64,000 nucleotides of DNA from positions 62,001 to 126,000 of the forward strand of contig CAWUHX010000017.1 of the NCBI GenBank assembly GCA_963922205.1. Direction: 5' to 3'. Shown here in pieces: positions 16,785-41,016 of this stretch. The position numbers and the translations under genes are program-made. Numbering within the stretch: position 1 is the first letter of the stretch; each line of letters starts with the position of its first letter. The stretch comes from Romanomermis culicivorax (lineage: Eukaryota; Nematoda; Enoplea; Mermithida; Mermithidae). The notes under the pieces were generated by a model. The model searched no databases, was not told where the DNA came from, and saw nothing but the letters and a program-made list of their open reading frames with translations.

Positions 16785-18660
16785 GGATGACGACCGACCA
16801 GTGTTTTTTGTTTGTGCACGCTCGGACATTTGTGCCGATTGGCACAAAGGTCCAAAAAAATTTGTGCCAATGGCTCGAAAAAAATTTTTTCACCCCAAAA
16901 CCATACTGAAAACATTTAAAAAGTTTTATGCCAAAAGTTTGATAAAATTAAGATATTTTTACCACAAAGAATGGCAGACAGTGTTTTTTTTTTGTGCCAA
17001 AACATGGTTTTTGGCACAAAAAAATTTGGAATGGCACAAAAAATTTTGAGCGTTTGTGCCAATTGGCACAAATTTTTTGGCAGGTCCGTCAAACATTAAA
17101 TTTCCTTGATTTTTAGACGTTTTAGGGGCTGAAAATGCAAAAAATTTTCGGCGCTCCGCGCCGAATCAATGAATATAATATTTCCTATTCGTATATTTGA
17201 CCCAAACGGGAACGATTTCTCTTTGAACAGTGTATTAGTATCGTTGCAGCAAACTTTATAGGCTGTCAAGACTGATGAGTGAAAAGAAATTCTGAATATT
17301 CTCTCTTCATTCAGTCAGATTCGGATTTAAAACTGAAATTGTGTGTTTGATTGATGATTCAAATAGAAAAATCGATGTCGTTGATAATGGCACAATGTTT
17401 CGATCGAAAATTAACACGATTTTCGACTTTATTTTCTCTAGTCTTTACATGGTTGTTAAATACACATAACATAGATATTCGTTCGTAGTCGAAAATTGAA
17501 TCAATTTGAACTTCCTGAACAATTCTAGAGCTATGTAAATTGTTTCAGCATTCCATTTCTTTTTGGGATTTCGTGAACTATTTTGTTGCACAGTTTTTTC
17601 TCTTCTCACTGACATGGTTAGCTGAGAAATAGGTTGGGCACAATTTTTACAAAAAATTAATGCATTAAACAATAACTTTTTATCAAACTTTTGGCCTAAA
17701 ACTTTTCCACAGTTTTCAGTATGTCTCTAGTGAAAAAAATTTTTTTGTGCCATTGGCACAAATTTTTTTGGCCTCTTGTGCCAATTGGCACAAATGTCCG
17801 TGCACAAAAAAAAAAAAACGCTGGACAGAGCACTAGCATCGATTTGATTGGTCGAAAAAATCCCATCCCATCATCAATTTCATCTCATTCATCCTTCATT
17901 TCAATTCATTTCAATTTCGTTGAAACTATTTACTGCGTTAATTTGATTGGTCGAAAAAATGTTTCCTGCATCTTAAGTCTTAACCGCAAATTAAATTATT
18001 TTCAATATTTTCCATTTTATAACGCATAGGAATGCATCTCTGGGCAGAAGACACTGTAACCTAATTATAACGGCCGTCAGGCTCCAGGTTGCACTGTGCA
18101 ATTTGACACAGAAAATTTGGTTGTACAGCCCGAAATTTGGTTGCTGTGTGCAAAAAAAACCTGCATTTCGGTTCCCAGTACGACCACTGAATGAACAGAG
18201 GAAGTCAAGAATTGCTATTCATTCATCGGTAATGGACAAGGTCAAGCTATAGCTGCAGTGATACAAATATACCATTCGAAGGTAATTCGCTGTCGTTCGA
18301 GGCAAATCTCGGCGCGCAGCGCCGAAAGAATTTTGCGCTTTCAACCCCTAGGCTAAAATCACTAAAAATCAAGGAAATTTTGCCCTAGATCAGCGAAAAA
18401 ATTTGTGCCAATTGGCACAAAAGCTCAAAATTTTTTATGCCATTCCAAATTCTTTTGTGTCAAAAACCATGTTTTGACACAAAAAAACACTGATGACGAC
18501 GCCATGTTTTTGTTTGCATTGCAACGGTTTTTTTTGTGCATGGACGTTTGTGCCAATATTGGCACAAAGGGCCAAAAAATTGTCAATGGCACAAAAAAAA
18601 TTTTTACCCTAAAAACACACTGAAAATCTTCAAAAAGTTTTAAGCCAAAAGTTTGATAAA
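16785..18660. mobile_element. Interleaved cluster of hAT-like ends with TTTGTGCCAATTGGCACAAA palindromes
   Basis: Two kinds of ends occur. Type 1 (CAGTGTTTTTTG..GTGCACG) starts at 16799, ends inverted at about 17824, and recurs directly at about 18495-18660. Type 2 (CAGTGTTTTTTTTTTGTGCC..ACATGG) starts at 16978 and ends inverted at about 18492. The pairs interlock instead of nesting. The sequence ATGACGAC flanks the first left end (16787-16794) and follows the type-2 right end (18493-18500). The 20-bp palindrome or near copies lie at 16829, 17053, 17776, 18402 and 18547. No transposase is seen. Open frames here are palindrome artefacts. Confidence 0.7.
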
Positions 18661-19155
18661 AATATAGAAACTAATGATACTTTCCTCCGCACCGCACTGA
18701 TTTGCATAAAAATCAGGCCTACCTTAATTTTATCCAACCACGTCAGTGGTATAAGAAAAACTGATCGAAGAAAACGGTTTCGATTCGAAAAGAAATCGAA
18801 TGCTGCAAGAATTCAGATTATTATAGAATTTGTCAGCAAGTTTATAGGTACTTTTCTTTAATTTTCGGCTATGTATTTCCTTCTAGCAACGATGTAAAGA
18901 TTAAATCAGATAATGTCTATAATTCCTTTTTCCTGAATAAACCTAGGTCAAAAGTTGCGTGAACTTTTGGTCCAAGAATTCTGATAACAGTGACCAATGT
19001 CAAATTTTCTCTTTGAATCAACTTTCAGTTCCCAATCGCACTGAATGAGAGAACTTCTATTCATACATCAGTCATTGCCAATCTCAACGTTTGTTGCGAA
19101 TAGAATTCGCCCGCGTTCAAGACAAATAAAAGTAGTTAATAGGACTCATTGACAT
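18661..19155. other. No gene seen
   Basis: AT-rich spacer between the CAGTG cluster and the LINE fragment. Stretches similar to 17220-17340 and 23020-23130 (GATCGAAGAAAACGGTTTCG-like) suggest old repeat DNA. Confidence 0.5.
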
Positions 19156-19202
19156 GTGAATTTATCAATTTTATATCATGGATATAAAATTGATAAATTC
19201 AC
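19156..19202. repeat. Perfect 22-bp hairpin at the 5' edge of the LINE fragment
   Basis: The 22-bp arms 19156-19177 and 19181-19202 are perfectly complementary with a 3-nt loop (ATG). The right arm overlaps the codons of the reverse-transcriptase fragment, so the left arm looks like an inverted copy of the LINE's own sequence made at truncation. Confidence 0.85.
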
Positions 19203-19467
19203 AATGAATTGGATTTGTGACTTCCTTACAAATAGAACTCAATGTGTAAAACTAAGTAATACCATTTCTGCTCCAACTCCAATAATGAGTGGTGTTCCTC
19301 AAGGAAGTGTGTTAGGTCCAACATTGTTCCTGATATTTATAAATGATCTGAGTGATATAATTAAAAGTTATCTCTATCTATTTGCAGATGATGCTAAAAT
19401 ATTTAATGATGCGTGTAATACAGTATTAATCCAGGAAGATTTAAACAGTTTCTATAAATGCTCTGAG

Positions 19468-19667
19468 CAGGGCTTTTTTTTCCGTACCGATCGATCCATA
19501 CCGTACGGAAATCCAGTGAAAAAATTTCCGTACCGCCTAACTTATTTCCGTATGGCGCAAAAATAGTTAAGTTAGTTAAAAAATAGTTCCGTACCGTACG
19601 GAAATTCCTATAAAATTTTTCCGTACCACCTGAAAAAAATCCGTACTGTACGGAAAAAAAACCCCTG
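19468..19667. mobile_element. 200-bp hAT-like MITE inside the LINE RT
   Basis: Ends CAGGGCTTTTTTTTCCGTAC and the inverse of CAGGGGTTTTTTTTCCGTAC, one mismatch in 20. The perfect 8-bp duplication GCTCTGAG is at 19460-19467 and 19668-19675. The subterminal word is CCGTACCGTACGG. Insert plus one duplication is 208 bp (+1 frame), exactly the frame difference between the RT halves on either side. Confidence 0.95.
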
Positions 19668-20270
19668 GCTCTGAGGAATGGCAACCTAGTACGTCATTGC
19701 CTAAATGTGCAGTCTTACATTTTGGGAAAAATAATCCATCAAATCGGTACACAATTAGTGAATGTGATCTTGATGCTGTCACTGAAATGAAGGATCTTGG
19801 TGTTTATGTTGATGAAAAACTCAGTATTGTTCCGCAGTGTGATTACATGATCAAGAAGACTTCTGGGCTATCAAATCTAATTTTTAAATGTTTCAACTCA
19901 AATATAAATGAATTAAAAATCAGGGCATTTAAAACTTATGTTTGCCCAATCCTTGAGAATGGTAGTCCTATTTGGAATCCTTCTCTAATGGGTGAAATAC
20001 AAAGGGTAGAGAAAGTTCGGAGGTGGTTCACAAAATGATTATATGGCTTTAACTCTAGGAACTATCAAGAAAGATTGGAGTCCGCCAGTCTGCATTCTCT
20101 TGAATTTAGGAGAACTATAACTGATTTATGCTATGTTTATTCTATAATCTGTAACAGCATTTTAGACTCAGATAATTTTTTTGTATACAGTAATTTTAAC
20201 TATCGTATTAACAACCCATATAAATTATATAAGACAAAATTTCGTATGCGATTACTTGAAAAAGATTTTT

Positions 20271-20545
20271 GTAATTTGGAAGAGCATCTACAGCGCTGCG
20301 CCCGAAGCTCTTCCAAATGTTTCGGCGTGGCCACTGCCAATTTTGGCGTGGCCACCATCATCTGTAAAAACTCCCATAGTCCTTGTCACTACAGAAAAAT
20401 TCTACCTACTTCAAGAATCGAATCTGGTCCACCAGCCTATGGACTCAATGCATTTACCACTACACAATTTCACCAGAAAGTATAAACACTATATTCCTTC
20501 AAGACCCTTGATACTATTTCACCTAACAACTTCATTTGGAAGAGC
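20271..20545. repeat. Small repeat with TTTGGAAGAGC arms
   Basis: TTTGGAAGAGC occurs at 20275-20285, inverted at 20308-20318 and direct at 20535-20545. It marks a possible short insertion at the 3' edge of the LINE. The segment between has no assignable product. Confidence 0.45.
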
Positions 20546-20599
20546 CTGAGCAGCTGCTGTACCCTAAGGCTATGAGCCTATGGAAAATTTTAAAGGAAA

Positions 20600-22220
20600 A
20601 ATAAATGTATACTCACTAGTCACAGAAATCCATGCTCAAAATTAAAAAACAACTCATTACAATAATTAGGCTGAAGGCTGGGAACTGACTTATAAAATTT
20701 AGCCGATGTCCGCTCAATTGGGTGCAGGGTTGGCGGGCATTGGGTTTTTATGTTGATGAGTTTTTTGGGTTGGAAAATTGGGAATTCCTGGGTTTTTGGC
20801 AGGGTTTTCTTGCAATTTCGTTCCAATTGCGTCAGTTTTAGGCTTTTAAAACCCAATTTTTGTTTCGAAGAGAAAATAGAAAGGTTTGTATGAGTAACGT
20901 GTTCGGCGCGTAGCGCCGAAAATTTTTTGGGGACTTATTCTAGATTGCTGGAAAATGAATCTTTTCAACTTTTAATTCCAAGACTGTAGGTTTAATTTTT
21001 TAGCGAATTCAATGAATTTTCAGTTGACAGACCACAATTCAAAAACTAGAGGAAAGCAACCAATAATTTCCATTCTTTAACCAGCAAGATCTTCTACTTG
21101 GACTCAAAATGTTCTAATCATACAAATGTCAAAATGTTTTTGAAGGTCGCAAAAAATTTTTGGGAAATAACTGAGAAAAATCCTGCTTTCCGTTAAATTC
21201 GCCAAAAAACAACTCAAGATCAAACATTTATCCATGATATGTTGATAATTAAAATTTATAAGTATTAGCTAGGATCACATTTTCTAACCCTGCACTGGAA
21301 TAATACAGAAAATTTATTAAATAATTTAAATCCGGCGTGAAGTGTCAGAAGATTTTCACTATTTTTCATTTTATAACGCATAAAAATGCATCTCCGGAGA
21401 GTAAACCCTATAACCTAATCAAAAGGGCAGTCAGGCTTCAAGTTACACTGTGCAACTTGACAGAAAAAATTTGGTTGCAGAGCCCGAAATTTGGTTGTTG
21501 CGTGCAAAAAAAACTCTGATTTTTGAGGTTTTTAAGTAAAAAATTCATTTTTTCCATTTTGTTCTCAAGAATACAAATTTCTATCTGATTTAACAATGAA
21601 TTGAGAGTTGAGCCAACTGTAGTATATGCAATGCAGTCTCTTCTGACGCTGACATGACAACAGATTTGAGATGAGATTACACAACACAACAAAAAAAATC
21701 AAATGCCTCATGAATTTTCAATTCAGGAAACTTTTAGCCCTATTCGATTTGGTTCGTACGAGGGTTCTGTTGAGTTGGGTTATTCTAGTCTAAAAGCTAA
21801 AGTTTCGTATTTGATAAATTTAACTTGTGTTTGAATTGTTTTTTGGCTGATTCTTTTTTTTTGGCTGAAGTTGATGGTAGCTTATCTGAATATTAGGCGG
21901 ATTTTACTGCTGATTAGCAGTGCTAGTGAGCAATACACAGCATTACTTGTAACGGCTAAAATTTTTATCATACCTATACTACTCACAGTCATCAGCAGCT
22001 AGTGAGGTGACTTAAGCAGCATTAAAATTACGAGGAAGACGGCAGACCTCCTGGAGAGAGAGGCAGCTGGCAACTTTTAGGGTACAAAACTGGGATAAAA
22101 TTAAAGATTTTGACATTTTTCGGGGGCAGCAGGCAGCTAAGTCTAGGGGTGAAATGAGAACCCCCTAACATCCCCATTCAGTGCCCCGAAGTGTGCTGGT
22201 TGAGTGGCCGTAAGCAGTAT
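20600..22220. other. No host gene seen; old repeat DNA
   Basis: AT-rich sequence with one GGCGC core palindrome (20904-20918) and a segment (21330-21510) resembling 17980-18160 (CATTTTATAACGCATARRAATGCATCTC). Nothing coding could be supported. Confidence 0.5.
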
Positions 22221-22222
22221 GA

Positions 22223-22640
22223 ATGTTGAAGGAAGATCAAACTTTCTTCAGCCTGCAAAATGACAATTTACAAAAACTCATCTTGGCAAGTGAAGATAGT
22301 GAAAAAAATACGTTTCATTACAAAATGGTGGATAGTGGTCAAAAATGTGCCATGCAATATTGGTTGACTGAAGGCAAAACATGGCCTTCATTGCAAAAAA
22401 TTGCCTTGAGAGAGAGTACGTTTTTTAAGACTAATATTGATGGGCACAATTTATTTTGTCATGTTATAATCAGGTGTTTTCCTTGGTGGTGTCCACTGCA
22501 TCATCGGAGCGTAATTTTTCAATCTTTGGCTTTGTTCACTCACCAATTTGCTTAATCGATTGCCATCTGCATCAGTCGAAAAACTACTCTTCATAAAATT
22601 CAATGCTAACAATTTTGTCAACGGTGTAGAGGTGGATGAT
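22223..22640 (+). pseudogene. hAT-family transposase C-terminus, broken
   Basis: Reads WLTEGKTWPSLQKIALR, then after an intron-like gap (about 22417-22473) the hAT dimerisation signature SSERNFSIFGFVHS (from about 22501). After a frameshift near 22545 it continues NRLPSASVEKLLFIKFNANN. The SSERNFS..FGF.HS..RNRL pattern is diagnostic of hAT C-terminal dimerisation regions. A GC-rich end with TGCACGGCCCTG (ends 22714) may be its right terminus. The left terminus was not found. It is not functional as read. Confidence 0.75.
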
Positions 22641-23309
22641 TTTATATGTTACGATCAGTAATTATGGGGAGGGGGCGGGCACCCCCCCCCCCGCCACCCT
22701 TGTGCACGGCCCTGATCCTGGATAACGAGTAAAGTCATCAAAGAAATGCAACTAAAATTCAATAATCAGGCAAACAACCGAAAATTTGGATTCTGCAACC
22801 AGCAAGGATTATTAAAATCCGTTTAAAATGCAACAAAATGCGTGTTGTTGACCTCGAATCCCCAAAGAATTTTGCATTATTTGGTAAAAGAGCCCAAGAT
22901 TTTTTTTGCCAGAAATACCGATTTGCCAAAAAACAAACAATGCTTGTAAGCAGCGCTTTTTTGTGCACGGATATTTGTGCCAATGGGCACTTCACTCTAT
23001 TTTTCATCCAATCACGTCAGTGAGATTAGAAAAACTGCGCGAGAAAACAGTTTGCAATTCAAAAAGAAATGAAATACTGCTAGAATTCAAATATCTGGAA
23101 AGAATTGTTCAGAAAGTTTGTGTTTTCCTTCAATTTTGGCTGCAAGTATCTTTCGAACTACGATGTACTGATCAAAAGAAAGGAGCAGAAGAATAAAAAA
23201 GAGACAGAAAAAGAAATAAAATCAAAAAACTGGGACGAAAAGTAAGAATGAAGAAGAACGACAAAAAAATTAATTAGGAAATGAAGCCTGCCGAACTGTA
23301 TATTACATA

Positions 23310-24057
23310 CAGGGTGAGCCAAAAAAAGGCGGGCGGTATTGACCGTCATAGCTTTCAAATGAGTGAAGCCTTTTCAATGCGGTTTCCTGCCGTCGATAGA
23401 CAAAACATCTGACATAAAGACTGCAAAGTTTCAGCCAGATTGCTCGAATATTGACTGACTAGAATCAGAAAGACGATTTTTTTGTAAATAAATATTCAAA
23501 AAATTGACAAAATCAACATGTTTTGCAGCAGAAAAGTACAATATAGGTCCAATCATAAGAACCACAGCTGAAAACTACAAGGGAGCCGTTTCAGTGTGTC
23601 CTACTTTCTGTTCCACCAATAATTTTAATCGTTTTCCTATCTGATCAATGATAGAATTGATTTCGTTTCGATTCTGCTATTTTTTCAGTTCCAAAACAAA
23701 TGTTCTTGATTTTGGCGAAATTTTGCCCATATTGATACAGGAAGTTTAGGATTTTAAATTGAAGGAAATTACGAATCTGGGTAATTTTTAAAGTATTATT
23801 TTGTGTAAACAGCTTTACAAAATTCTTTTCATAGTATGACAACCTTTACTATGATTTCACAACTTTTACTTTTTCAAAAATGACCCTTTTTACGAAATTT
23901 ATGTTTGTACAAAAATAATAAACGCTAGGAGCATAAAGCTTGACCCTTATAATGAAGACAAACAGGAGATTCTAATGCAGCAATCCGCACAAAAAAAGCT
24001 TCATACATTCGAAAGTTATGCAAGTCAGCATTGGTCGCCTTTTTTAGCTCACCCCAT
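23310..24057. mobile_element. Mariner-like non-autonomous element
   Basis: Left end CAGGGTGAGCCAAAAAAAGG; right end is the inverse of TGGGGTGAGCTAAAAAAGG. TA flanks both (23308-23309, 24058-24059). Inverted similarity extends for about 75 bp (CATARCTTTCRAATG then TGAAGC). No transposase frame is visible in the 0.75-kb interior. Confidence 0.75.
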
Positions 24058-24132
24058 TATATCATCAATAATTTGACGCAAAAGAAATATAAATTCACAG
24101 CATTTGATTTTAGAATAATTAAATGTAATAAT

Positions 24133-24245
24133 TAGAGATGCAATGGATCCAAGATTTTTAGTCTTCCGGATCCAGGTAATCAACTTACCTCGATCCAATT
24201 CCGGATCTGGGTAATTGAAAATGAGTTTCACGGATCCGGGTGATC
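24133..24245. repeat. Left-type end with GGATCC words
   Basis: Starts TAGAGATGCAATGGATCC and carries GATCCGGGT/GATCCAGG words. The same style is seen at 26215-26364 (ending GGCCCATCCCTA) and at 54652-55878. I could not confirm that 24133 and 26364 are two ends of one element because the flanking octamers differ. Confidence 0.45.
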
Positions 24246-25259
24246 AGGCCGAGTCGTCGTTGCAACGAAGGTGCAACAATTTGAGAACAAACGCGGTCCG
24301 ACTAGCAACGAGCTCCGAGCGTACAAAAAGAGCTAATGAAATTGAGCCTTTTGTATAAAATTTTATGAAGTGTTTTGTAAATTTGCTGAATAAAAACATT
24401 GTTACCGACCCTTGACATTGGGCTTTACAGTAGGATCGAAAAATCGTGATAGCTCTGCTCGATATACATGTTTGAAAATTAAAAAAAAAAGAGATGTTTG
24501 AAAATCTATCCTTATTTGCTACACTTGAAGCAAGCACAGTTTTCGGATGTTGGTCATCAAATTTAAAGATTTTAATTTTTCAAAAAACAATATATTTATA
24601 CAATAAAACAGTAATATTTTTCACCAAGCTTTCTTTTTTTCGTACATGTGCTTCGTGCGTTGAATCTGAAACAATAGTATATATAAAATATGCAGGATTA
24701 CTGTAGATTGAAGTATAAGGGGACTTCTTATTATGTCATAACATTAGACGAAGCGCCTCTAATACGCCTCTAGTATTCCTCCAGCGCATCTCTAATAAGA
24801 CGCGTGCAAGGCGAGAGAAACCCTCTAATAATCCTCTAATACATCTCTACGCAGCTGTAGCGCACCTCTAATATTCCCTCAATAATGCAACGTTTCCAAC
24901 CTCCACTAAGCTCTAATACACCTGTAGTTTTCCTCCAGTGGATTATTAGTGATGCATTAATTTTGTCCGGTACTGTACAGATCCGGATCCGGGTAGCAAT
25001 AATCTATAATACAGATGCTGTGATTATACAGGCATTTTAATTCATGTGTCTTTAAATGATCCTAACAATTTTCGAAATGTTGTTTGCGATTGGTTATAAT
25101 GAGAATTCATTATTGGATATTATTGGCCTTAAAATCGCATAAAAATGTGAAACACCTTTATTAGAATAACACAATATAACACACAATAATACAGTGGTGA
25201 GCGACGTTTCGGTAGTGTACCTATTTGTACTTTCTTCAAAATCATTCTTGTCATAGTCT

Positions 25260-26010
25260 GATTCTAAACCGTCTAGAAATTCCACCGGCGATATCTCTGT
25301 GATCAGTCAAAGTAAAAAACTATAGACTGCATTTAATTATCTTCATTCTGTTGCGAAGCGCCGGAAAATTTTTTGGGGTTCTATACTCTAGGACGCTGGT
25401 AAATGAATGTTTTCAAGACTTATTCCATGGCTAAGGTTTAATTTTTAAATCCAGAATGATGTTCTGATTTGAGTAATGAGATCATGCTTTCAATCAGCTA
25501 ACCAGCGAGGAAATCGGCTTGAAGCAAACGATGTTTAATAAATTCAGGCGAAACAGCAAGAATGATAAAAAAGTTCCAGCGCAAAGCGCCAAAAATTTCT
25601 ATGGATTTTGATATTACAATGCTGAAAAATGAATTCTGTCAGCAATTATTTCCTGAATAAGCGGTATAATTTGCAGTCAATTAAACCATTTTGCATACGA
25701 GAACAGAATGTAAAAATCATATTGGAAGCACGCAAGTGCAACTCAAAAATCAAACTAGCAACCAAAAATTTAGGTTCTTCAAATTTTGATTTTGGTCAAA
25801 TACCAAGATGAAGATCGTAGATTAAAATAGCAAAAATCATAGACTAAACAATAATGTGAGATATTTTATTTTGTGAAAGAGTCGGCTAGAACAACAGCAT
25901 ACGAACTGCGCTGAAAATCCGTATGTTATGAATATTGACTTCTGCACTCTGCACAAAACGTCCTAAAAACTTTCTGCACGAGCTCCAAAAACTGCTCAGT
26001 GCACAAAAAA
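25260..26010. repeat. Partial copy of the GTGCACGG repeat family
   Basis: The sequence parallels 57110-57680 and 39580-39815: GCGAAGCGCCGG (25353-25364), a shared A+T-rich middle, and the end TGCACTCTGCACAAAACG...GCACGAGCTCCAAAAACTGC. Confidence 0.6.
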
Positions 26011-28786: not shown

Positions 28787-28972
28787 ATTCCAATTCAATT
28801 TTCTTGTCTTTCCTGATTTTTCCGCTGGGAATTTTTTTCAAGCATTCCATCCCGTAATGGCGCCCGATAGTTTAATTTTAGCTTTCAAGCCATCTACGAT
28901 AAATTTAGGTATAATACGCAACGTTACTTCCATTCTAGTTCGTAGACGTCACTCAGCAATCTAGCCCATAAC

Positions 28973-29783: not shown

Positions 29784-30729
29784 TCATTTGTACATGTACA
29801 AACGGCTCTTTCTCCATTCAGGGAAGAAAATTTTGGGGATAAGGTACAGAAAATATGCATTTTGGTGCATTTTAAAAGTTCATAATCTCAAAATTATCCG
29901 GCGCTTCGCACCGGTTATAACTTTCATAATCATTATTATGTATTACCTAGCTCAGACGCGGCTTTCAGAATGTCTACCTTCACTTATCATTTAATGTATA
30001 ATAGTTTTCATCATCTCAAACATATTACCTCATGTTTTAAGTGGTAATCTTCAATATTTTATGATATTTAATGAAGATTCACAGTTTTTCCTTCAAACAT
30101 TTTTTGAGAAAGATCAACGTCAAGTCTCTAAACTTTTTGAAGCTATTATTCCTTTCTTAACGTAAAATAAATTCGGAAGTTTTCGGAAATTTCTACTCTT
30201 CCACTCATATATTTTCGGCCAAGTTCATGAGAGTTAACGAATAAATTACTGGTTTTAAAATTTTTCAAATAATAAATAATAAAATTCTAAAAATTACGAC
30301 TGTTGAACACAAAATTCCAATCTAATTCTGGAAGTAAATGTTAGGAAAATTGATTTTCCACCGTCGCCGAATGTCAATACACAAGAAATTTTTCCGGCTC
30401 GGGGTTTTCACTTGTCATCATAGAGAGCTTTACCATAGATTTATCATCTAATGCAAATTCATTATGCTATTGGATAGTTTTCTAGAAAATTTGTACCACA
30501 ATACTTGTAAATTAGACTTGAAACTCGAAAATTTCAATTTTTTGCTCAATTTTAATGAATTTTCTTTGTAGTCGTAAATTAAATTTGAAAATTACACTGA
30601 TTCGGTTATTAGTCTTTTTTGACGTAGAGGAACACAGGCTACTTATTTATACTTATTTTTGCTATGTAAAAATGAAATATTGGCTCCCGTTTGTACATGT
30701 GCAAATGGGTCATGTACAAAAAAACGCTG
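29784..30729. mobile_element. Element with TTTGTACATGTACAAA word and CAGCGTTTTTTTGTAC right end
   Basis: The right end (inverse of CAGCGTTTTTTTGTACATG) is at 30729. The left side has CAGTCATTTGTACATGTAC at 29781-29799 and seems to lack the T-run. The word TTTGTACATGTACAAA (29787-29802) pairs with GTTTGTACATGTGCAAA (30689-30705). It contains the module GCATTTTGGTGCATTTT..CCGGCGCTTCGCACCGG (29865-29914). No target duplication was found. Confidence 0.6.
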
Positions 30730-32155
30730 TTCGTAAATAAACTTATGTGTAAAATTTAAAGGATGTTTCGAGAAAGGCTTTTGTAACTTTTATACCTGGC
30801 GTAATTGTATGTTCGGCTTGACAACATGTTACGGCTTCAGATTTTGAGACAATCAACTTATGGTATAGTCGACTAAGTTTTCGTTATGCTGCTTTTGCTT
30901 ATCGAGCTTTTCTGCTCATCCATCCACGTACGCGTATGTGCACACATCTAACCTTTCCAACTTTCCTACCCCCTCTCCTTTCGTCGGTTCAGAGAGACTA
31001 AAACTATATGTATTCGGAAAGAATCTTGTCGTTACTAAAAAATCTCCACTCCATTCCTGCCAATGGCCGTCTCTTTCAGGTGTGTGCGCATACAGACACA
31101 GAAACGTATTTATCGAACCGCTGCATTACATTCTGACAAGGCGGAGATGATGGGGTGCGCTGCATTATCAAAACGTAGCTTTATATATGCTTTCACTTTC
31201 TCTGCGGTTTTTAATGAGCTTCCGCTTCCAGCGTACAACTCATGTAACGGGGATTCAGGCCTTTTTAGGCGTGTTTTAGGCATTTTCTCCATCTACCCCG
31301 GATTGTTATTATTCCCGTACATTCGCTAGAGATAATGTCATCGATTCTTTTTGCCTTGCTGCGTTCGCCTATGGATAGGTATGGGTTTATTTTATACATC
31401 TACTGTCGGAAAGAATAATACCCTCAAGAAAAATTTTCTACACTGTTCTCTGATAATGATGGGTGTTGTAGTGTATATCTTGTGTCCGTAGACGTTTTTC
31501 ACATACCACGATGTTCATTGCACGTTTTTCCGAATTATATCTTCATCTTATTGGATCCGGCCTCATTCTTGATTCCCGACTACCATCATCATCGTATCTC
31601 AAATATAATTCATTCTAATATCAGCAACGTGCGTGTGTGTGAATGTTTTTATCAATCTAATATTCATTCTTCTCCTTTTGCTCTCTTTTTTGCTCGTGAT
31701 CGATTGCAATATCTAAACCTAAGATTTAACTCGAGCACGGTTTTAACTTCTTAACCTGTAGTTTAGCTACACTTGACGCATGGTTTATTTTTTTAGCACG
31801 AGTCCTATTAGCAGTCGTGCCAATAAAAAATATATTTCTTTGTTGGTCTTAAACTAATGTGTGAGTTTGTCGATTCTAATAATCTGCTTTTATTGTATTA
31901 TCGATTCATGAAATCATGCTTGATGTTGGTACTTTCAGAAAAAATTTGAACGAAAAGGAAAGAATTTAGGATGAATTTTTTTATTTTGTCGAAGTTATGG
32001 AATAAATTTAGAAAATGACGATTTTTGATATTTTATCACAATTTGTCGACGTCTTTGATCTGATTTTCTTACCGAACTTTTCTTAAAAATTTTGCACTTC
32101 CAGTCATTAGCGCGGTGCAAGAAAAGAAAAATGTATTATCCTATATATATTTCTC
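30730..32155. other. No supported gene; pyrimidine-rich spacer
   Basis: The region 30920-31760 is less AT-rich and CT-rich (CTTTCCTACCCCCTCTCC at 30959-30976), with frames open up to 88 codons but no protein motifs. It could hold an untranslated exon or promoter of a downstream gene, which I cannot show. Confidence 0.3.
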
Positions 32156-32792
32156 TTGACGGGTAGTGTTCGTTACCGCGACACGCCCGTTACCGCTGCC
32201 TTTTTGTTCGATTCATAACCGCGACAGGCCCATAACCGATACCAAAAAAATTTCGTGTTCATAAAAGGAATCAATACATAAAAATTGAAAATTGAGGTGA
32301 GTGCTTGCAGGATGATTTTTTGACTCGTGTCTTGTGCACATGACGGAAAATACTTCAATAAAGTATGAAACCTTAGTGCCACGGAAAACTGAATATGTAA
32401 TTAGATACACACAGGAAGCACGATAAAGCAACGCTATCACACATCAAGATTTTGAAAAAATTGAAGTCCTCAAATTCAGCTTGAAAGCAATTTTTTTCTA
32501 GGTGGATACAGAAACCCTCTTTCGCTTCATCTGATACAGCATGTCTTGATCTATGAGAGGAAGCAGTTTCATCCATTTGGGGATGAATCCCATCAAGTTA
32601 ATTCTTTCCAAAGTTGCCGATTTATTATTGTCCGTTGAGGGGCCTTTAGACATGGTGTCAAACATCGAACTCCTACTCCACAAATATTTCACGCAAGATG
32701 CTAATATTTCACAGGTGTTCATTTGAGACATGGGGGATCCTTCATACAAAATTTTAGCTAAATCTGGGAGGGTCGTGCAGGAACCCCTTGAT

Positions 32793-33189
32793 CATACATG
32801 TAATTGGGGGGAAGTGCTATGGGAACCCCCCCCCCGGGATTTTCCAATCCTATGGCTAGCCATATGGTAGCCCTAGGGACCCCCATAGTTTTAGCCGAAA
32901 AAATACTGAAAAATGTCATTTTTTCCATGAAAAGTGTCAATTTTTGAACAAAAAATGGTCAAAAACGTCAATTTTCTCGACACTTCGCGCCATAAGTACA
33001 TATTTTATCATTTTTTAGACAAAAATTACTACTTTTTAAACCGTTTTTCGAACATTTTTCATGGAAAAAATCGAATTTTTTTCCTTCAAGGACCCCTCCC
33101 CCCAAAATTTTGGGAATTACTGACCCCCGGCCCCAAAAAAGTGCTCCAACCCCCCCCCCCCCAGACCTCGGAGCTCCGTTACATGTATG
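32793..33189. mobile_element. hAT-like MITE, CATACATGTAA family, copy 1
   Basis: The 397-bp element has inverted ends CATACATGTAA and TTACATGTATG and a perfect 8-bp duplication CCCTTGAT at 32785-32792 and 33190-33197. C-runs and GGGACCCC words lie near both ends, and GCGCC sits in the middle. Confidence 0.95.
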
Positions 33190-33451
33190 CCCTTGATCAC
33201 TTGACATGGAATGACCCTTCACAAATACCGGGTCACTATGGACAACGGGGATGTAACGTAGTTTTTGAGCAAGAAAAACTTTGCCACTTCTATAACTTTT
33301 TGCTCAATACCCTGTTTTATCACAGTCTACCCTTCAAAAATCTTACATTATTTACTAATTTATTTTTCCATTGTCCCTTCCTCTGCTTATTTTTACACAA
33401 TATGTGAGCATGTCAAAATCAAAAATGTAGTGGTAATAATCCTGTCGCGGT

Positions 33452-35063
33452 TAGTGATGGACCGATGCATCGGCATCGGCCGATTGTTGCGTTTTTCTGC
33501 CATCGGCCATCGGCCGATGTTTTGACAAATAATCGGCCGATGGCCGATTGTTTGGCAACTTTTTGTTACAATGAATGCATATGCTTATGCTTAAAAACGG
33601 ATTCTTCACATATATATTTTACAGTTACTTTAGTGAATACATAATTTTTTTGTGGAAATGGTTGTTTTAATGTCTGGCATATTTGCCCTGTATTGCCATT
33701 GATGAACTAAATAACAAGAATTTGACACGCTATGAATGGGATATTTTAGCTACGGCAGTAAGAACATACGAACATACTTTAATACATGTATAATCTATCA
33801 ACACCTTAGATAATTATGTTTTGGCAGCTTGTAAATTTGTTAAAATCTTGTGCAGAAACTGTAAAAATCTATGAATCTAATATTTCAGAAGAAATAGCTG
33901 AAGAAAAGTAAGCTAGATTTTGTGCCTAAATTTTTTTGAAAAACATAAATTAAGGAATCTTAGATTAGGAATTTTATGCCACTCAATCCATATTTCAACT
34001 TTCATGGATTGGGTTCATTAAAGGAGGAATTGTCGGGAAAAATGAATCAATATTTTTATAGAAATGATAATCGAGCCCACTTTAAACTCATTGAAGACAA
34101 TAGACTTCATGCTTTGGCATCTTTACTAGTTCCTTGATTTAAAAAGGATGGATTGAAATTTGAAATATAACACATATTGATCATACAAATCAAAATTAAA
34201 TAATTTAGGCTTTCTGTGATCCTCAAGCAGAAGACAAAGCTGAACTAGCTTTGGTTAGAATGATTGTCGATCAAAAACAACAAAATCAACGCTTTTCTGA
34301 AAATATGGTTCAAAAATTTGAATGAATCTTCAATCTCATTCTCCAAACTTTCTCAGTAAGCCACAATTAATACTAATGTAAATAATTCAAGCATTTACGC
34401 AAAACTGACCAATTTCAGGCACTATTTGGCCATTGCAAGTTCATCTGAAGATGAGCTGTAGCCCAAAAAATATGCAATGTCAGCATTTGAGCAAGCAAAA
34501 GACATTGTTTTGGAATAGATTACTAGAATAATGGAAGAAAAATGCTGCAACAAAACCAGAATTAGCTAATGTGAGTCACAATAGTATGCAGTTGAAAATA
34601 TATTTCATTATGGAAAAAATTTCTTTAGCTTGCCATGAAATTTTTATCAGCTCCAATTGGGTCAGTAGCTAGTGTATGATCATTTTAAAAAGCAAAAGAT
34701 GCTAGAAGTGGAAAAAGATCCCGCTTATTGCTGAGATTGGATTCAATAGTGCAAACTGGAAAAACAAGCTGAAGTTGAAGAAGCTTCTAGTGAACTCAGT
34801 AATCAAAGTGAAGGTAGTACAACAGATGCCTTTGTTGATGACAAATTGGATGAATGAAATGTTGTTAATTATTGAATGTTGGAAATATCAGTAGAACTTG
34901 GTGAATAATTCATAATAATTTTAAATTTATTACAGTGTAGCAACTTCAGGTTGCATTTTGTACATGTTACAGCCGATGCATCGGCAATCGGCCATCGGCC
35001 GATGCGTCGGCCGATGCATCGGCATCGGCCGATGGCAAATTTTTGGCCATCGGTCCATCACTA
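33452..35063. mobile_element. hAT element with degraded transposase
   Basis: The 1612-bp element has ends TAGTGATGGACCGATG and CATCGGTCCATCACTA (perfect over 16) and a perfect duplication GTCGCGGT at 33444-33451 and 35064-35071. Both ends reiterate CATCGGCCGATG. Inside on the + strand are hAT transposase remnants: HALASLL.P.FKKDGF (about 34108-34155, with a stop), AFCDPQAEDKAELALVRMI (about 34209-34265) and LAMKFLSAPIGSVAS (about 34628-34672) followed by stop-broken KAKDARSGKRSRLL. Several stops show it is inactive. Confidence 0.92.
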
Positions 35064-35071
35064 GTCGCGGT

Positions 35072-37116
35072 ATATACTGTATATAACATGTCCTATGATC
35101 AAGAATATATTCCGGTCGCTGTAATGAACCCAGTATCGGTTATGAGCCTATCGTCGTAACGATCCCCAATCATATTTGATTAGCATTTATAGTTTTGCTT
35201 TTTAACACTGGAAATCATATGAAACTCCTACCACCGTAGCCAGTCTTTTCACGAACAAATAATGGCAAACATCGGTTGCGAACAATGGACATAGAAAGCA
35301 TACAGGAGTTCAGACTTAGTCTACTACCTCACCTTCCAGATTTAAGTTTTCCATTACCTTAAAACCGAGCTCGAGTTTCAAAAAATACCATTTTTCATTG
35401 CAACAGAAACTGACGAGTTCGCGTTCAGCTCGATGGTCGTGGTTCATCGCGCGAAACCTAAGCTAAATTTACTGTTGATATTGCAACCGGCCCTTGGACG
35501 TTAACATTTTTTCCAAAGTATATCATCGTGGTATGTGTGTGCTTTTGAATTTGTATAGCACTGCTTTCTAACGCTTATCAGCAAAAAAGTTAATATTGGG
35601 TGTCTTACCACTACTACAATTGGAGCCAAATCTGGTTTTACATTGCCGGGAAGAAGTTAATCTTTATTTCGTTCGGGCTGTTGTACAGAAAATTGAAAAA
35701 TGACCTTGTCATTTAACATAGTCTGTTTTCCTTGAACGCTTGTACATAATATTACTGGAAAGCAAGTACTATTTCATGTTTTTACAATTTTTTGCTTATG
35801 TCAAATAGGACTGAAAATTTTTAAGCACACACAACTAGCCTTTAAGTTTTTTTGAGTAAATATTCTACAGTAAAAGCTTCGTACAGTAAAAGTAAAAGCT
35901 TCAAAATCATTGTAAACGATTTGACGACAATATTGATTTTTGCCATTTTTAAATTTTTAAAGTTTTCTCTTTTTTCCGTGATACCGATTTGAAATGTTTT
36001 CCCTACGCTGTTTTCATTTCTCTTACATTGCTTCTCGAGTAGTCCTGCTCAAATTGAACACGATTGTTTTAGCAATATGTAGGAAAAACTCATGAAAATT
36101 TATCATAGTTTTATGCGAGCTCAGATTGCTGCATCTGTAATGACATAATGAAGTGATGAGTTGAGAACGGTCAGTCTCTCATTCGTAGAACTGATGGATA
36201 TGAAACGAGGAAATATCAGTTTTTATTCCACTACATTATGCGTAACGTGTGAGGGCAAGTTAAGAAGAACTTTAATGAAAAAAGGATGTGTAATTCCATT
36301 CAAAATTTGATGTATTTGGATCAAGTCCCATTTTTCTACGTGTAATTTAATCATTGATCCTCAAGTATTGCTTTTTGATCAAGATTCTGTTAAAATTGGG
36401 CTGTCAAAATGTCTTGAGGTTCAACTTTGCAACAGAAAATTAGTGCTGTCTTTTTGCTGATGTTGATATTCAAAAGCTAGTGCACATTGCCGTGAAAGAG
36501 TGAAGAATAAAAAAATCATTTTCGCTGTTTTGGTACACACGACAGTGACCATGATGAAGTGATTAAAATTTCACGTGAAATGATAAAAGGCACGAACAAC
36601 AAATATACATTTCAAAGACGTTAAATTCGGAATTGTATCGGCCGTATGATGAGGTCGATTTGTCGTTCTCGGGCACTGCTTTAAAAGACCGTGATGAGGA
36701 ATTTTCAAATTCATAAGTGTCAGCTGACCAATGTACAATGCCCGAATAGCGACGTCATAATTCTCGAATCAGAGATATTTCCATTTTTGATATTTTTCTG
36801 AACTTTCCAGAATGAAAAATAGAGTCTGCTGATCGTGTCGGGGCTAGATTTGCTTTTTTGTCATAGTTTGATGGGCCACTAATCTGTCGAAATTTAACCT
36901 CGAAAAAAATAGAAAAATTATCGGGAAAAATTTTGATCTCTAATGTCAGAAAAATTTTGATCTCTAATGTCTATTTAAGACGTCATCTCAAGAAATTTCT
37001 GATCTAGAAATGACTATTTTCGATCAAAAATTGGATATTTTCAGTCATTTCTTTCGGGCAGGAATGTTATCAACAATAAGATTAACGAAGTCTGACAGAG
37101 TGTAGCTGGTTTTTAG
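35072..37116. other. No host gene seen; includes partial TA-MITE
   Basis: Positions 35726-35955 match one half of the TA-MITE family (TAGTCTGTTTTCC..TGGAAAGCAAGTACTATTTC). The remainder has no supported coding sequence. Confidence 0.5.
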
Positions 37117-39815
37117 TGCATTGCGTGGTGTGCACGGTGCACAAATTGGGTCAAAACATACATGTAATTAGGGGGAAGTGCTAGGGGAACCACCGCCCAG
37201 AAATCGTCGATCATATGGCTAGCCATTGGGCGACCCCCTCTCCAGGATTTTCCAATCCTATGGCTAGCCATATGGTAGCCGTAGGGACCCCCATACTTTT
37301 GGTCGGGAAAATACTGAAAATGTCTTGTCGAAAACGTCAATTTTCTCGGCGCCTCGCGCCATGAATAGATCTTTTTCTGTCTTTTTAGAAAAAGATTACT
37401 ATTTTTTAACTATTTTTCGAACTTTTTCCGTGAAAAAATCGATTTTTTTCCTTCGGAGACCTCTCCCCCCAAAAAAAATTTGCGAATTACTAACCTCCGG
37501 CCTGAAAAAAGTGGCCCGATGCCCCCAGACCTCGGAGCCCTATTACATGTATGGGTCAAAAAGTTAATGCACTGTGAGAAAAAAATCTGGACATTCCTTT
37601 GGGAATTCATTTGATGCTGTTTCACAAGTACATGGCTGTCGCCGACATTTGAATGCGAGGCTGCGAGACTGTAAATTGTACTAACATATGCTGCTTTAAA
37701 ATAATTTCACATTTCTCTGCGACATCTGAAAATATATCAAAGATTCAGCCCTAATATGAATACCAACAATGAGTACATGTAACAACGCAAACAATGATAA
37801 AGATGTGTCAGAAGCAGGGATTTTTAGGTCAATTTGGAGCCATCGATTCTAAAAGTTCTGATTGGCTCCTAAAAATTTAGGGACACAAGCCAAATTGGCT
37901 TGTAAAAATGAGAGCCTAACCATCCTTTCTGATTAAGTTATAGGGCTTCTTGTGCGGTGATGCATTTTTATGCATTTTGAAATGAAAAATACGGAAAATT
38001 TTCCGGCGCTAGGCGCCGGATTTTAATTCATTCATGATAATGGATATCATTTCTGTTGTGCGGTTAGAATATGTCATCCTAGCTTATGCTTATGGCTTTC
38101 AGAAACCAGCATGTTATGGATGAATGTTTGACCTCGTGTTGTTTTTTCCACGTATTTGACAAAAATCAAGATGTTTTTACAAAATCGTTTTGCGGCGCTT
38201 TAGAATTTTTGGCTTTGGTGAACATAACTTTTTTCATTTGGAAAATGATTAAAATATCATGAGAATGGGAAAATAGCAGAGATTCTTGCTATCTGAAGAA
38301 GCCATTGAGATTCATTGTTGCTGACCTAATTTTGGAATTTTAGTTTGCCCCACTGAAAACATATTGAATTCACTGAAAAAATAGACCTTCATGCTGGAAA
38401 AAGATATTAAAGGTATTCATTTTCCAATGCTATGGAATATCATAATCTAAAATTTTCTTTCAGTGGTTAGCGCCTGAGGTATTCAAGTCCGAAGTAAAAT
38501 ACCTGTCGCGCTTTTTTATGTTATAGCTCGTCTGAAAACAATCACTTTTGATGAATAATTGTGATTGCTAAATTACTGGCTCCGGATATATAAGATCCAA
38601 AATGGAGGTAAAATGTTTGACCTTTTCCGCTAACGAAATGGTGAAAAGATCGGTCATCGGCAGTTGCAGTAGAATGTGCTGAAAGAATGCATTTTCCGAC
38701 ATTTTAGAGGCCTCGAAATAAAAATTGTTCAGCGCTAGGCACCGATCAAGTTACTCTAGTCAGACTTTTGATTTCTCACCTAAAACTCAAGAAATTCAAC
38801 TTTAAAAGTCACGAACTTACGCGAAGTGAATGAAATGCATGGGAAGTAACTTTTAATCATTTTTCTGATGAAACTAAGCGAATTTATCAATTTTAGAGTG
38901 AGCAACTAAAAATTAATCTGTGCAACCAAATTTTTCCCCAAGTTACAGATCAACCTGGCTTGTGCGGATAATCCCTGATGATTGATTTGAATAATGACTG
39001 ATCTAATTTGTGAGCCTTATTATTCTGTGTGTGATTAAGAATGTATCCAAAATGATTGATCTGTTATGTGGGCTTCTACCGTGATTTTGAAGAGTGTTTT
39101 TGACTAAATTTGTTGGAAAAAAAACATTTTTTTTACCACCACATTTATTTACAAACTTTTTAGTTTTGGCTTGTTGAAATTCCTGTTGGGCTGTAAAATT
39201 TTGACCATAGGAGCCAAATGGCCTATCGAGAAAAAATAAAAAACCTTGGTCAGAAGAAAGACTAGTGTTATCATCCTTGACTGCTAAAAACCCCGAAAAA
39301 ACCCGAACTTTTCGGATCACAAAATATGTATAGAATATTAACAAAAAACCATTTTATTAAATGCAAATGATGTTAAAACACTATTTTTTCGTACTGATTT
39401 TTTTGCGGTTAGACGAAAGAGGTCAAATTTTTTTCGCCATTTTCGCTGAAAAATACTCACACATGCCTTATTTATACTTTTTTGAGCTAATTGGAACATC
39501 TTTATGCCTGTGCAGCCGCTAATTTACCAAAAATGAAGACAAACAAAATTTTCGAGTTTAAGATCGCATCAATAATCACGCGAAGCGCCGAAAATTTCTA
39601 TGAATTTTGATATTAGAGGAAAATGTATTTTGCCTTGATAAACGGTCTAATTTTGCAGTCAATTAAATCGTCTTCCATACAAGAACAAAATGTAAAAATC
39701 ATATTGAAAGTATGCAACTTGAAAACCTGCATGATATGAAAATCGACTTTTGCACCGTGCACAAAGCGCACTACAAATTTGTGCACGAGCTGCAAAAACT
39801 GCTCTCGGTGCACAA
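37117..39815. mobile_element. Long member of the GTGCACGG repeat family
   Basis: The left part (GTGGTGTGCACGGTGCACAAA from 37127) parallels 56431 onward; the right part (TTTTGCACCGTGCACAAAGC..TGTGCACGAGCTGC, to about 39815) parallels 57600-57680. It shares unique interior with the 56.5-57.7 kb copy (TACCAACRATGAGTACATGT). A 397-bp MITE is inserted at 37157. Core palindrome CCGGCGCTAGGCGCCGG at 38003-38019. No transposase was recognised. Ends are approximate. Confidence 0.6.
37157..37553. mobile_element. hAT-like MITE, CATACATGTAA family, copy 2
   Basis: The 397-bp element has ends CATACATGTAA and TTACATGTATG and a perfect duplication GGTCAAAA at 37149-37156 and 37554-37561. The related repeat at 56431-56500 has the same surroundings with a single GGTCAAAA (56461-56468) and no insert, so it serves as an empty site. 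Confidence 0.97.
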
Positions 39816-40776
39816 AAAGCCTGTATTGTAGCTGTCCGAAGATTTTTAAGCGTCTTTAGGCTTTGAAATCGTAGCTATTCTAGATTCGTAAAAACATTTA
39901 TAATGACATGCAAGGAATACCTCGTGTCTAATGAAAGAATGAATCACTTTTTTATACAAACAGGCTTTTTTAGTCAATTTTAAAGGCCTGGGCCCCCAAA
40001 TATTTGGAAATGGCTCCTAAAACTTCAGGTAAGAGCTATTTCAGCTCTTAAATTTAGCCTTATTTGTTTATATTTTAGTGAATTATAGTCATTTTCATTC
40101 AATTTTAGTTTTAAAGTAAGTGTTTTACAGGCTTCGGCGCTACGCGCCGAATCGCATTTTATAATTTTTCGGATTATTTTAGTCTATCCACCGTTTTTCT
40201 ACAAATCAAACTTTTTGGGGGAAAAAATTTTTCGACCAAGAGAAAAAATGAGGGGGTTCGACAAGGAAAAGATCAGTTTTAGTGCATTTAAGAGGTCGAA
40301 ATCTCAATTTTTTCATTTTTTTGTAACTATAATTTTAAATAAGGAGCCAGTTCGAATTCATAATCATAATAGAGGTGATTTTCATAAATTTCATGTTTAA
40401 TTTGAATTCGTTCCATCAACTTATCCTTAAATTGATTTTTCAGCATTTTAGTGTCAGAATGAAAAAAAAATTCGTTGCTTAGCGCCGGAAAAATTTAAGA
40501 AATAACAGAAGAATAAGAACAGAAGCTGCATTTTCAAGACCCTACACTTTTGTGCCAGAAGGACATGAACTAGAGTGCTATGTTGGAAGAAGGTTTGTTG
40601 AAAAATAAACGAAAATTGTGTTTTTTGCATTAAAAAAATTTTCTTTGCACAAAGATTTCTTGGCCGATCATTGTATGCATGTATAGAAAGAAGTCTGTAA
40701 CCGAAAAACGCTGGTTGAAAATAAAATTTTGAACCGTAATTTTTTTCAACACCTATCAACTGATTCGATATCCATA
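39816..40776. other. No host gene seen
   Basis: Contains the module AGTGCATTTAAGAGGTCGAAATCTC (as pieces at 40280-40306), a core palindrome CGGCGCTACGCGCCG (40135-40149) and a half core at 40481-40490. The longest open frame is on the minus strand over T-run and palindrome repeats and is judged spurious. Confidence 0.5.
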
Positions 40777-41016
40777 CAGTGTTTTTTTTTTTGCACTGTG
40801 CAAAAATTTTTCCGTTCGTGCAAAACTTTTTTTTCAGGTTTTTTGCACCGTGCAAGAAAATATCTATCAATTGTGGAAAAAAATTTGGTGTTTTCATATA
40901 GAAAAGATTCATTTTGGTGCATTTTAGTAGACCCAAATTTCAAAATTTTTCGGCGTGCAAAACTTTTTTGGTGATTTTTTTGCACCGTGCAAAGGAGCTC
41001 GTGCAAAAAAACACTG
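40777..41016. mobile_element. 240-bp hAT-like MITE, CAGTGTTTTTTT end with TTGCACCGTGCAA word
   Basis: Ends CAGTGTTTTTTTTTTTTGCA and GTGCAAAAAAACACTG. Flanking octamers TATCCATA (40769-40776) and TATTCATA (41017-41024) match at 7 of 8. Palindromic words TTGCACTGTGCAA and TTGCACCGTGCAA recur at 40791, 40839 and 40979. It carries the module CATTTTGGTGCATTTTAGTA (40911-40930) followed by a half GGCGTGC core. Confidence 0.85.

What the first reader, a model, noticed from the sequence alone, without database searches (positions are those of the whole stretch)
16799..41016. Interchangeable palindromic words just inside a shared CAGNG-T-run terminus
Several short elements start with CAG(T/C/G)G or similar plus a run of T, and immediately inside carry a different palindrome: TTTGTGCCAATTGGCACAAA (16829, 17053, 17776, 18402), TTGCACCGTGCAA (40839, 40979), CCGTACCGTACGG (19588-19602) and TTTGTACATGTACAAA (29787). 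The T-run or A-run border is constant while the word changes completely. In hAT elements, subterminal repeats are transposase-binding sites. The pattern suggests parallel MITE lines that kept the terminus and swapped the binding word, as if each answers to a different transposase.
Basis: partly seen in the sequence, partly recalled or inferred. Interest (0 to 1): 0.72.

Follow-up and report, generated by a model that had tools for sequence, protein, structure and literature searches.

The report
Same transposon ends, swapped recognition words
Many short jumping DNA elements in this genome keep the same kind of tip and nearly the same spacing of repeated short words while the word itself differs between families, and four of these words sit upstream of genes or gene remnants for predicted transposases, each of which likely recognises its own word.

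Summary
CA(G/C)NG-T-run tips carry not one palindrome but a set of half-words at near-fixed spacing. The two ends differ: one ("B") has sites at p, +14, +22', +46; the other ("A") at p, +8', +28', +52, +60'. Eleven words fill this frame in whole or part (CCGTAC, CCGCAC, TTGCAC, CTGCAC, CCCC, CCAC, GTGCC, TTAGC...). Elements have 8-bp target duplications, and bodies beside different words are homologous (CCCC against CCAC: 81% over 956 bp). A deletion derivative with word CCGTAC led to a transposase family (zf-C17orf113-like finger plus DUF4371, both weak Pfam matches; Hermes is the top fold match of a poor model). Of 10 upstream regions fetched among 44 relatives, 8 show an A end: CCGCAC (3), TTGTAC-type (4), TTGCAC (1). 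The finger helix differs between CCG and TTG words at three of the four positions where Hermes contacts bases. Best reading: one hAT lineage with fixed geometry split into word-specific lines, MITEs following each. Binding is untested; GTGCC, CCCC, CTGCAC and TTAGC have no transposase assigned. New variant of a known kind.

The parts
16799..18492 (+). GTGCC-word element: B-type end at 16799 (half-word, then palindrome at 16829-16848), A-type end at 18492 reading left; 8-bp duplication ATGACGAC at 16787-16794 and 18493-18500, with 4 extra bases CGAC between the left copy and CAGTG
16979..17823 (+). nested pair of GTGCC-word ends inside the former: A end at 16979 (half-words at 15>,34<,54<,77>,86<) and B end at 17823 reading left; no target duplication found
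19468..19667 (-). CCGTAC-word MITE, 200 bp, inside a non-LTR reverse-transcriptase-like reading frame (recognised by eye); 8-bp duplication GCTCTGAG on both sides; B end at 19468, A end at 19667; 18 places at 100% over the 93-bp A end including this one, among 40 scored
40777..41016 (+). TTGCAC-word MITE, 240 bp; A end at 40777 (14>,22<,42<,66>,74<), B end at 41016 (10>,24>,32<,56>); duplication TATCCATA/TATTCATA (one mismatch); keeps a CCAC-family body just inside its A end
29787..29802 (.). palindrome TTTGTACATGTACAAA without an adjacent CAGNG-T tip
30640..30729 (-). B-like end CAGCGTTTTTTTGTACATG..TTTGCACATGTACAAACGG, the nearest tip with a TTGTAC-type word
3417..3500 (+). A-type end with word TTAGC (9>,19<,39<,60>,71<)
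21430..21518 (-). A-type end with word TTGCAC lacking the +8 site
22951..23010 (+). B-type tip with word GTGCC (CAGCGCTTTTTTGTGCACGGATATTTGTGCCAATGGGCAC)
37815..37905 (+). tip CAGGGATTTTT with palindromes of the GGAGCC family; its spacing was not tested
57590..57677 (-). A-type end with word GTGCAC, partly decayed

Best explanation
These are short transposons, likely non-autonomous hATs, whose tips and half-word spacing are nearly constant while the word differs between families, and the word is likely the docking site of the zinc finger of one particular transposase. SHOWN: 8-bp target duplications; two different end types per element; nearly the same half-word spacing for different words; shared bodies; four words upstream of separate but related transposase genes or remnants. 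INFERRED: the tip is read by the catalytic domain and the constant spacing fits an oligomeric ring like that of Hermes, so only the finger helix and its sites are free to change, and they change together; each shift founds a new transposase line with its own MITEs, which the other lines probably mobilise poorly. Words appear to change in two ways: in step at most sites of one body (CCCC to CCAC), and by a new end on an old body (a TTGCAC end on a CCAC body).
For: Target duplications: 10 pairs with at most 1 mismatch among 497 tip pairs, one of them an artefact inside a palindrome, against 0.7 expected per offset; 19 of 20 fetched CCGTAC copies exact, the other off by one base. Consensus nTnnnnAn in that family (T at 2: 12 of 21, p 0.02; A at 7: 15 of 21, p 1.5e-4), the preference stated for Hermes (PMC10368747, passage). 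Spacing: B end p,+14,+22',+46 (within one base) for CCCC, CCGCA, CCGTAC, CTGCA, TTGCA; CCAC fits the first three; A end p,+8',+28',+52,+60' (within one base) for TTGCA, CTGCA, CCGTAC, and the same shifted by 11 for GTGCC and, in part, CCTC and CCCC; a word-blind detector finds tips in 5 of 7, 7 of 12 and 4 of 5 hits, against means of 0, 0 and 0.125 tip-bearing hits for 40 altered spacings each. Shared bodies. Linkage: an 875-bp CCGTAC element, duplication CTCACTAG, with a finger reading frame; 45 related places, itself included, of 79 candidates; upstream DNA fetched for 10 of the other 44, A ends in 8. Protein: zf-C17orf113 E 8.5e-5 over 61 of 63 positions and DUF4371 E 2.3e-4, both under Pfam's cut-off; the best 11 fold matches of a 97% identical relative are Hermes chains (low-confidence model, TM-scores 0.17-0.27, two with E under 0.001). 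Helix: WRTSNLTDH for CCGCAC (2 proteins; CCGTAC reads WRTSN, then is cut off), WQVDFFKYH for TTGCAC, WRIDAFNYH for TTGTAC. CGGBP-like hAT proteins bind diverse motifs, and the four hAT-encoded motifs match their own subterminal regions (PMC8097297, part 1 of 3 read).
Against: No binding or mobility data. Eight target duplications from other words, orientation not standardised, do not show nTnnnnAn (T at 2: 4 of 8; A at 7: 2 of 8). Two of the 10 fetched upstream regions show no own A end within 440 bp (C207, C147). 34 of the 45 related places were not looked at. Every transposase copy read is broken or incomplete (C10 internal deletion, C96 and C8 a stop, C59 a frame change, C7 open for 351 codons then broken); the C-terminal hAT domain was not seen in this line. 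The spacing was read from the same sample that the detector scanned; of the transposase-linked ends, C7 (all five sites) and C96 (four of five) are new sequences that fit, C94 keeps two exact sites, and TTGTAC-type ends fit only in part (+28, +50, +60). A B end was seen in only one transposase-bearing element (C10). The helix comparison rests on five proteins and two word classes; at the -7 position C7's Q is not shared by three near relatives, which have R.
Confidence: 0.74

Rival explanations
1. The word families are simply old, independently diverged hAT families; the shared spacing and T-run reflect a general hAT requirement, with no swapping on a common element.
For: TAGNG-tipped hATs in the same genome also pair a constant tip with different palindromes near base 16, by eye, so fixed geometry may be wider than this lineage; A ends of different words are only 53-73% alike.
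Against: Bodies are homologous across words: in an 81% identical 956-bp body the B end has CCAC in place of CCCC at three of four half-words, with the matching change in an A end of another copy, and a TTGCAC end sits on a CCAC body; fingers are 35-49% identical in the nine next-best matches, i.e. paralogues of one line.
Confidence: 0.15
2. The words are binding sites for host zinc-finger or other proteins (silencers or promoters) and MITEs are sorted by host regulation, not by transposase.
For: Palindromic words near tips would also suit host dimeric factors; no binding data exist here.
Against: Half-words sit at near-fixed distances from one another, just inside the tip at both ends, even in a 107-bp element that is little more than two ends (L020:4439-4545); the finger of the linked transposases differs with the word.
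Confidence: 0.06
3. The class belongs to P elements (8-bp duplications, THAP finger), as P-derived MITEs in Anopheles (PMC1562414, passages).
For: 8-bp duplications and MITEs made of two ends plus foreign filler are also known for P elements.
Against: The linked proteins have a C-x2-C-x25-H-x5/6-H finger with a weak zf-C17orf113 match, a weak DUF4371 match and Hermes as top fold match. The P-element family search did not complete.
Confidence: 0.03
4. The palindromes act as DNA or RNA hairpins, so that only self-complementarity matters and the letters drift freely.
For: The families compared have a palindrome in at least one end.
Against: Single half-words without a partner (B end p and +46; A end +28) keep the same letters as the palindromes of the same element, which a hairpin role does not need.
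Confidence: 0.02

Closest known systems
Hermes (hAT, housefly) transposon ends and BED finger (PMC10368747, passages read)
   Same: Palindromic pair of subterminal half-sites just inside the tip plus a further single site; dissimilar left and right ends; exact phasing matters; 8-bp duplications nTnnnnAn; residues just before the first zinc His read the site
   Different: Here the finger is zf-C17orf113-like with C-x2-C-x25-H-x5/6-H, tips carry a T-run, half-words have 4-6 or more letters, and eleven alternatives fill the frame in whole or part in one genome
CGGBP-like hAT proteins and domesticates (PMC8097297, part 1 of 3 read)
   Same: hAT N-terminal fingers with diverse specificities whose motifs match the subterminal regions of their own element
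   Different: The part read concerns proteins tested on arrays across species; it does not describe constant tip and spacing with swapped words or MITE families per word
P-MITEs of Anopheles gambiae (PMC1562414, passages read)
   Same: MITE families that keep about 100 bp of each end of an autonomous subfamily and change the interior
   Different: There each MITE keeps the ends of its subfamily; here related bodies carry ends with different words
DUF4371 protein of Romanomermis culicivorax (P0123)
   Same: 44% identity to the TTGCAC-linked transposase; finger plus DUF4371 in its precomputed domains
   Different: Its transposon ends were not seen; finger helix WRSTYMNDH differs again

Membership tests
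hAT superfamily | 8-bp target-site duplication | tested here: met
   19 of 20 CCGTAC copies exact; 7 pairs with other words, exact or with one mismatch; ATGACGAC for the GTGCC element, 4 bases off the left tip
hAT superfamily | target preference nTnnnnAn | tested here: inconclusive
   met in the CCGTAC family (T2 12 of 21, A7 15 of 21), not in 8 duplications of other words (4 of 8, 2 of 8)
hAT superfamily | short inverted tips CA(G/C)NG (recalled as typical) | tested here: met
hAT superfamily | transposase with RNase-H-like hAT catalytic domain | tested here: inconclusive
   DUF4371 E 2.3e-4, under Pfam's cut-off; two relatives carry a precomputed DUF4371 assignment; Hermes is the best fold match of a low-confidence model of a relative
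hAT superfamily | C-terminal dimerisation domain PF05699 in the same gene | not tested
   the C7 gene was read only to 514 codons; in 40 PF05699 neighbourhoods fetched, no T-run end was recognised as the gene's own, though for some no end could be set
hAT superfamily | N-terminal zinc finger | tested here: met
   zf-C17orf113 61 of 63 positions, E 8.5e-5 but under the curated cut-off; C107, C110, H136, H143 invariant in four relatives
MITE of hAT | short, non-coding, ends shared with an autonomous relative | tested here: met
   CCGTAC MITE A end 98% identical to that of the transposase-derived element at C10; TTGCAC MITE A end 74% identical to that upstream of the C7 transposase; no intact autonomous copy was seen
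P element | THAP finger and P transposase | not tested
   PF12017 search did not complete; Pfam scan of the 351-aa protein listed no THAP match

The most novel reading that the evidence does not exclude
The genome holds a natural lock-and-key series: one hAT lineage in which geometry and catalysis are frozen and the docking word plus a few helix positions are exchanged as a unit, so that transposon 'species' arise by changing the word in concert at every site, probably to shake off the MITEs that use the old word; the eleven or more words and their linked fingers would give a readable finger-to-word code.
Probability: 0.4. Interest if true: 0.85.

Novelty: new variant of a known kind. Interest (0 to 1): 0.74.

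Why it matters
How a transposase and its many binding sites change specificity together is hard to study, because every site must change at once. Here one genome holds about eleven outcomes on one frame, with sequence links to transposases for four of them. That makes the code of zf-C17orf113/BED-type fingers, the escape of autonomous elements from their own MITEs, and the isolation of transposon lines within one genome directly testable. No paper describing constant spacing with interchangeable words was seen in seven library searches (listings, with three papers opened in part), which is not proof that none exists.

Tried and rejected
Treated the palindromes as chance or low-complexity: rejected. 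Looked for the transposase among PF05699 hits: 150 scored of 1837 candidates, 40 downstream stretches fetched. Families covering 21 of the 40 end in TAGNG-type tips; others end differently (one, L051/L053/L055, reads CAGGAATTTTTTTCGGGGG), and for some no end could be set. T-run ends with words there belonged to MITEs inserted nearby where both ends were seen (L029, L034, L054); others (L028, L047, L063) were seen at one end only. A TTAGC-like end 720 bp from the domain in L044 was first taken for an autonomous end; the gene's own end is a TAGGGATG tip. Compared listed CCGTAC end places with PF05699 places by eye: none within 10 kb, both lists being capped. Searched window and loci for the finger: only the source locus clear; a homologue search with the 114-aa piece found nothing. 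A reverse-transcriptase query did not name the organism. Rfam scan of the window: 0 matches. The word-blind genome survey with a degenerate palindrome and family searches PF12017 (46), PF02892 (73, 82, 89, 92, 94, 96), PF25431 (108, 117) and PF14291 (126, 130) did not complete, so there is no genome-wide count per word beyond.
Full report
What was checked. The window is G000:C17:62001-126000 of a 359-Mb, 595-contig assembly. The words are present with small errors of place or letter: two of the four cited copies of TTTGTGCCAATTGGCACAAA are exact, one differs by a base, one is two letters shorter; CCGTACCGTACGG is at 19589, TTGCACCGTGCAA at 40843 and 40980; the palindrome at 29787 has no tip beside it. 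Palindromes are in excess (105 against 44-68 in five shuffles), and the longest word has 2426 exact places genome-wide with none for the reversed control.

The anatomy is richer than a palindrome. In 200 kb of arbitrarily chosen stretches plus the window, 82 CA(G/C)NG-T5+ tips were found, 30 with a palindrome within 110 nt. Aligning by the first half-word shows two kinds of end. The B end has the half-word right after the T-run at p, again at p+14, reversed at p+22, and at p+46; this holds within one base for CCCC, CCGCA, CCGTAC, CTGCA and TTGCA, and CCAC fits the first three sites. The A end has p, reversed p+8, reversed p+28, p+52, reversed p+60, within one base, for TTGCA, CTGCA and CCGTAC; TTAGC is close (+10, +30, +51, +62); GTGCC keeps nearly the same inner spacing but stands 11 bases further from its first half-word (+19, +39, +62, +71), about one helical turn, and CCTC and CCCC fit that in part; GTGCAC and TTGTAC ends fit in part. 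That makes eleven words in the frame, whole or part; a twelfth, GGAGCC, was not tested for spacing. The inner part of the A end is the reverse of the B end's palindrome plus third site, so this module lies in the same orientation at both ends of an element while the tips are inverted; the 107-bp element L020:4439-4545 shares a single copy. A detector that knows only the spacing and no word finds tips in 5 of 7 (B), 7 of 12 (A) and 4 of 5 (shifted A) hits, against means of 0, 0 and 0.125 tip-bearing hits for 40 altered spacings each. The spacing was read from the same sample, so this shows specificity, not independent discovery.

They are mobile elements, most likely of hAT type. Of 497 tip pairs, 10 have 8-bp duplications with at most one mismatch, one of them an artefact inside a palindrome, against 0.7 per control offset. 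The CCGTAC element at 19468-19667 interrupts a non-LTR reverse-transcriptase-like frame with GCTCTGAG on both sides. That family is young: 70 A-tip places, 65 exact, 18 places at 100% over the 93-bp end among 40 scored of 186 candidates. Of 20 copies fetched, 19 have an exact 8-bp duplication, with the Hermes preference nTnnnnAn; 8 duplications from other words do not show that preference. The GTGCC element spans 16799-18492 with ATGACGAC on both sides, four extra bases standing between the left copy and the tip.

Each element keeps to one word. Besides those 20 copies, 14 elements had recognisable duplications; 13 carry one word at both ends, one of these decayed at one end (L018:6427-7569), and one (L013:2746-4012) is a mosaic with a piece of another family inside. 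This count was made by eye.

Bodies are shared across words. A CCCC element (L011:24-1021) and a CCAC element (L014:951-1907) are 81% identical over 956 bp; in the B end three of four half-words read CCAC in place of CCCC, and an A end of another CCAC copy (L047) shows the matching change (the A end of L014 itself is decayed, and only one B end and two A ends of the CCAC kind were in hand). The TTGCAC element of the window is 88% identical over 82 bp to the CCAC body just inside its A end and still holds TGTGGAAAAAAATTTGG, a relic of the CCAC end; this looks like a new end on an old body. GGAGCC and TTGCAC-type elements share 71% over 323 bp, CCTC and TTAGC 67% over 437 bp.

Finding the transposase. 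PF05699 gave 150 scored places of 1837 candidates. Of the 40 neighbourhoods fetched, families covering 21 end in TAGNG-type tips followed by a palindrome centred near base 16 that also differs by family (GGTTAACC, GAGTACTC, GGTACC, GATATC; by eye). This is the same rule in a second hAT group, with transposases attached. For the T-run group the link came from an 875-bp CCGTAC element (L091, duplication CTCACTAG) whose interior holds a 114-codon piece with a zinc finger. Related pieces lie at 45 places, itself included, of 79 candidates. Upstream DNA was fetched for 10 of the other 44; 8 have an A end, where the tip was in hand about 210-300 bp before the start codon: CCGCAC at C96, C94 and C59 (tip of C59 cut by the fetch edge), TTGTAC-type at C8, C313, C136 and C169, TTGCAC at C7; C207 and C147 have none within 440 bp, though C207 has a piece of a TTGCAC-type element nearby. 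The C7 end (11>,19<,39<,63>,71<) fits the A spacing at all five sites and C96 at four; C94 keeps two exact sites and the TTGTAC-type ends fit in part. The TTGCAC MITE of the window is 74% identical to the C7 end, about the same as its likeness to the CTGCAC end (72%), so it is the word and spacing rather than overall identity that ties it to C7.

The protein. The C7 gene is open for 351 codons and then broken. It matches zf-C17orf113 (E 8.5e-5, 61 of 63 positions) and DUF4371 (E 2.3e-4), both under Pfam's cut-off. Four relatives were found; one is named from Romanomermis culicivorax (44%), another, unnamed, is 97% identical, which hints at a mermithid nematode; the organism was not established. 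A low-confidence model of the 97% relative (mean pLDDT 54.5) has Hermes chains as its first 11 fold matches, with low TM-scores. In Hermes, Q64, S66, N67 and R70, just before the zinc ligand H71, read the half-site (PMC10368747, passages). Counted back from the corresponding His, the CCGCAC fingers read R, S, N, D (C96 and C59; C10 with CCGTAC reads R, S, N before it is cut off), the TTGCAC finger Q, D, F, Y, and the TTGTAC finger R, D, A, Y. Three close relatives of the TTGCAC protein have R at the first of these, so that position does not mark the class.

Mechanism. The most economical account is a Hermes-like assembly: tip in the catalytic site, fingers on a palindromic pair plus single sites at fixed phase (shown for Hermes in PMC10368747; inferred here). 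The frame is held by the oligomer; the word and the finger helix can change if they change together. Linkage of four words to four related transposase sets is shown; exclusive recognition is inferred. Why words change is open; escape from MITEs that use the old word is one idea without a test here.

Limits. Genome-wide counts by word are missing because most searches did not complete; 34 of 45 finger places were not read; GTGCC, CCCC, CTGCAC and TTAGC have no transposase; all statements on binding are inference.

Noticed in passing
L025-L064 (downstream of hAT PF05699 domains): TAGNG-tipped hATs with attached transposases also keep the tip and swap a palindrome centred near base 16 (CCGGTTAACCGG, CGAGTACTCG, CGGGTACCCG, CGGATATCCG).
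   Followed up: partly
G000:C3:1226612-1227010: Two CCGTAC MITEs stand head to tail about 207 bp apart, as if sharing or abutting a target site.
   Followed up: no
window 40890-40960, L011:120-190, L014:1010-1060, L095: A body motif close to GAAAAGATGCATTTTGGTGCATTTTA recurs in elements with different words; its core is also found upstream of a CCGCAC-linked transposase remnant.
   Followed up: partly
G000:C10:1419420-1419699 and other places: A sister CCGTAC subfamily has B tips with CCGGTCGATCC instead of CCGATCGATCC; the one copy read has a different A end.
   Followed up: no
window 62455-62877: Reading frame resembling a cyclic-nucleotide phosphodiesterase catalytic domain (recognised from memory), so the window likely holds part of an animal gene.
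   Followed up: no
window 33462-33549 and 34972-35032: Two clusters of ATCGGCCGAT-type palindromes, apparently unrelated to the T-run tips.
   Followed up: no
window 19155-19203: A 49-bp inverted repeat (23-bp arms) at the start of the non-LTR-like fragment.
   Followed up: no
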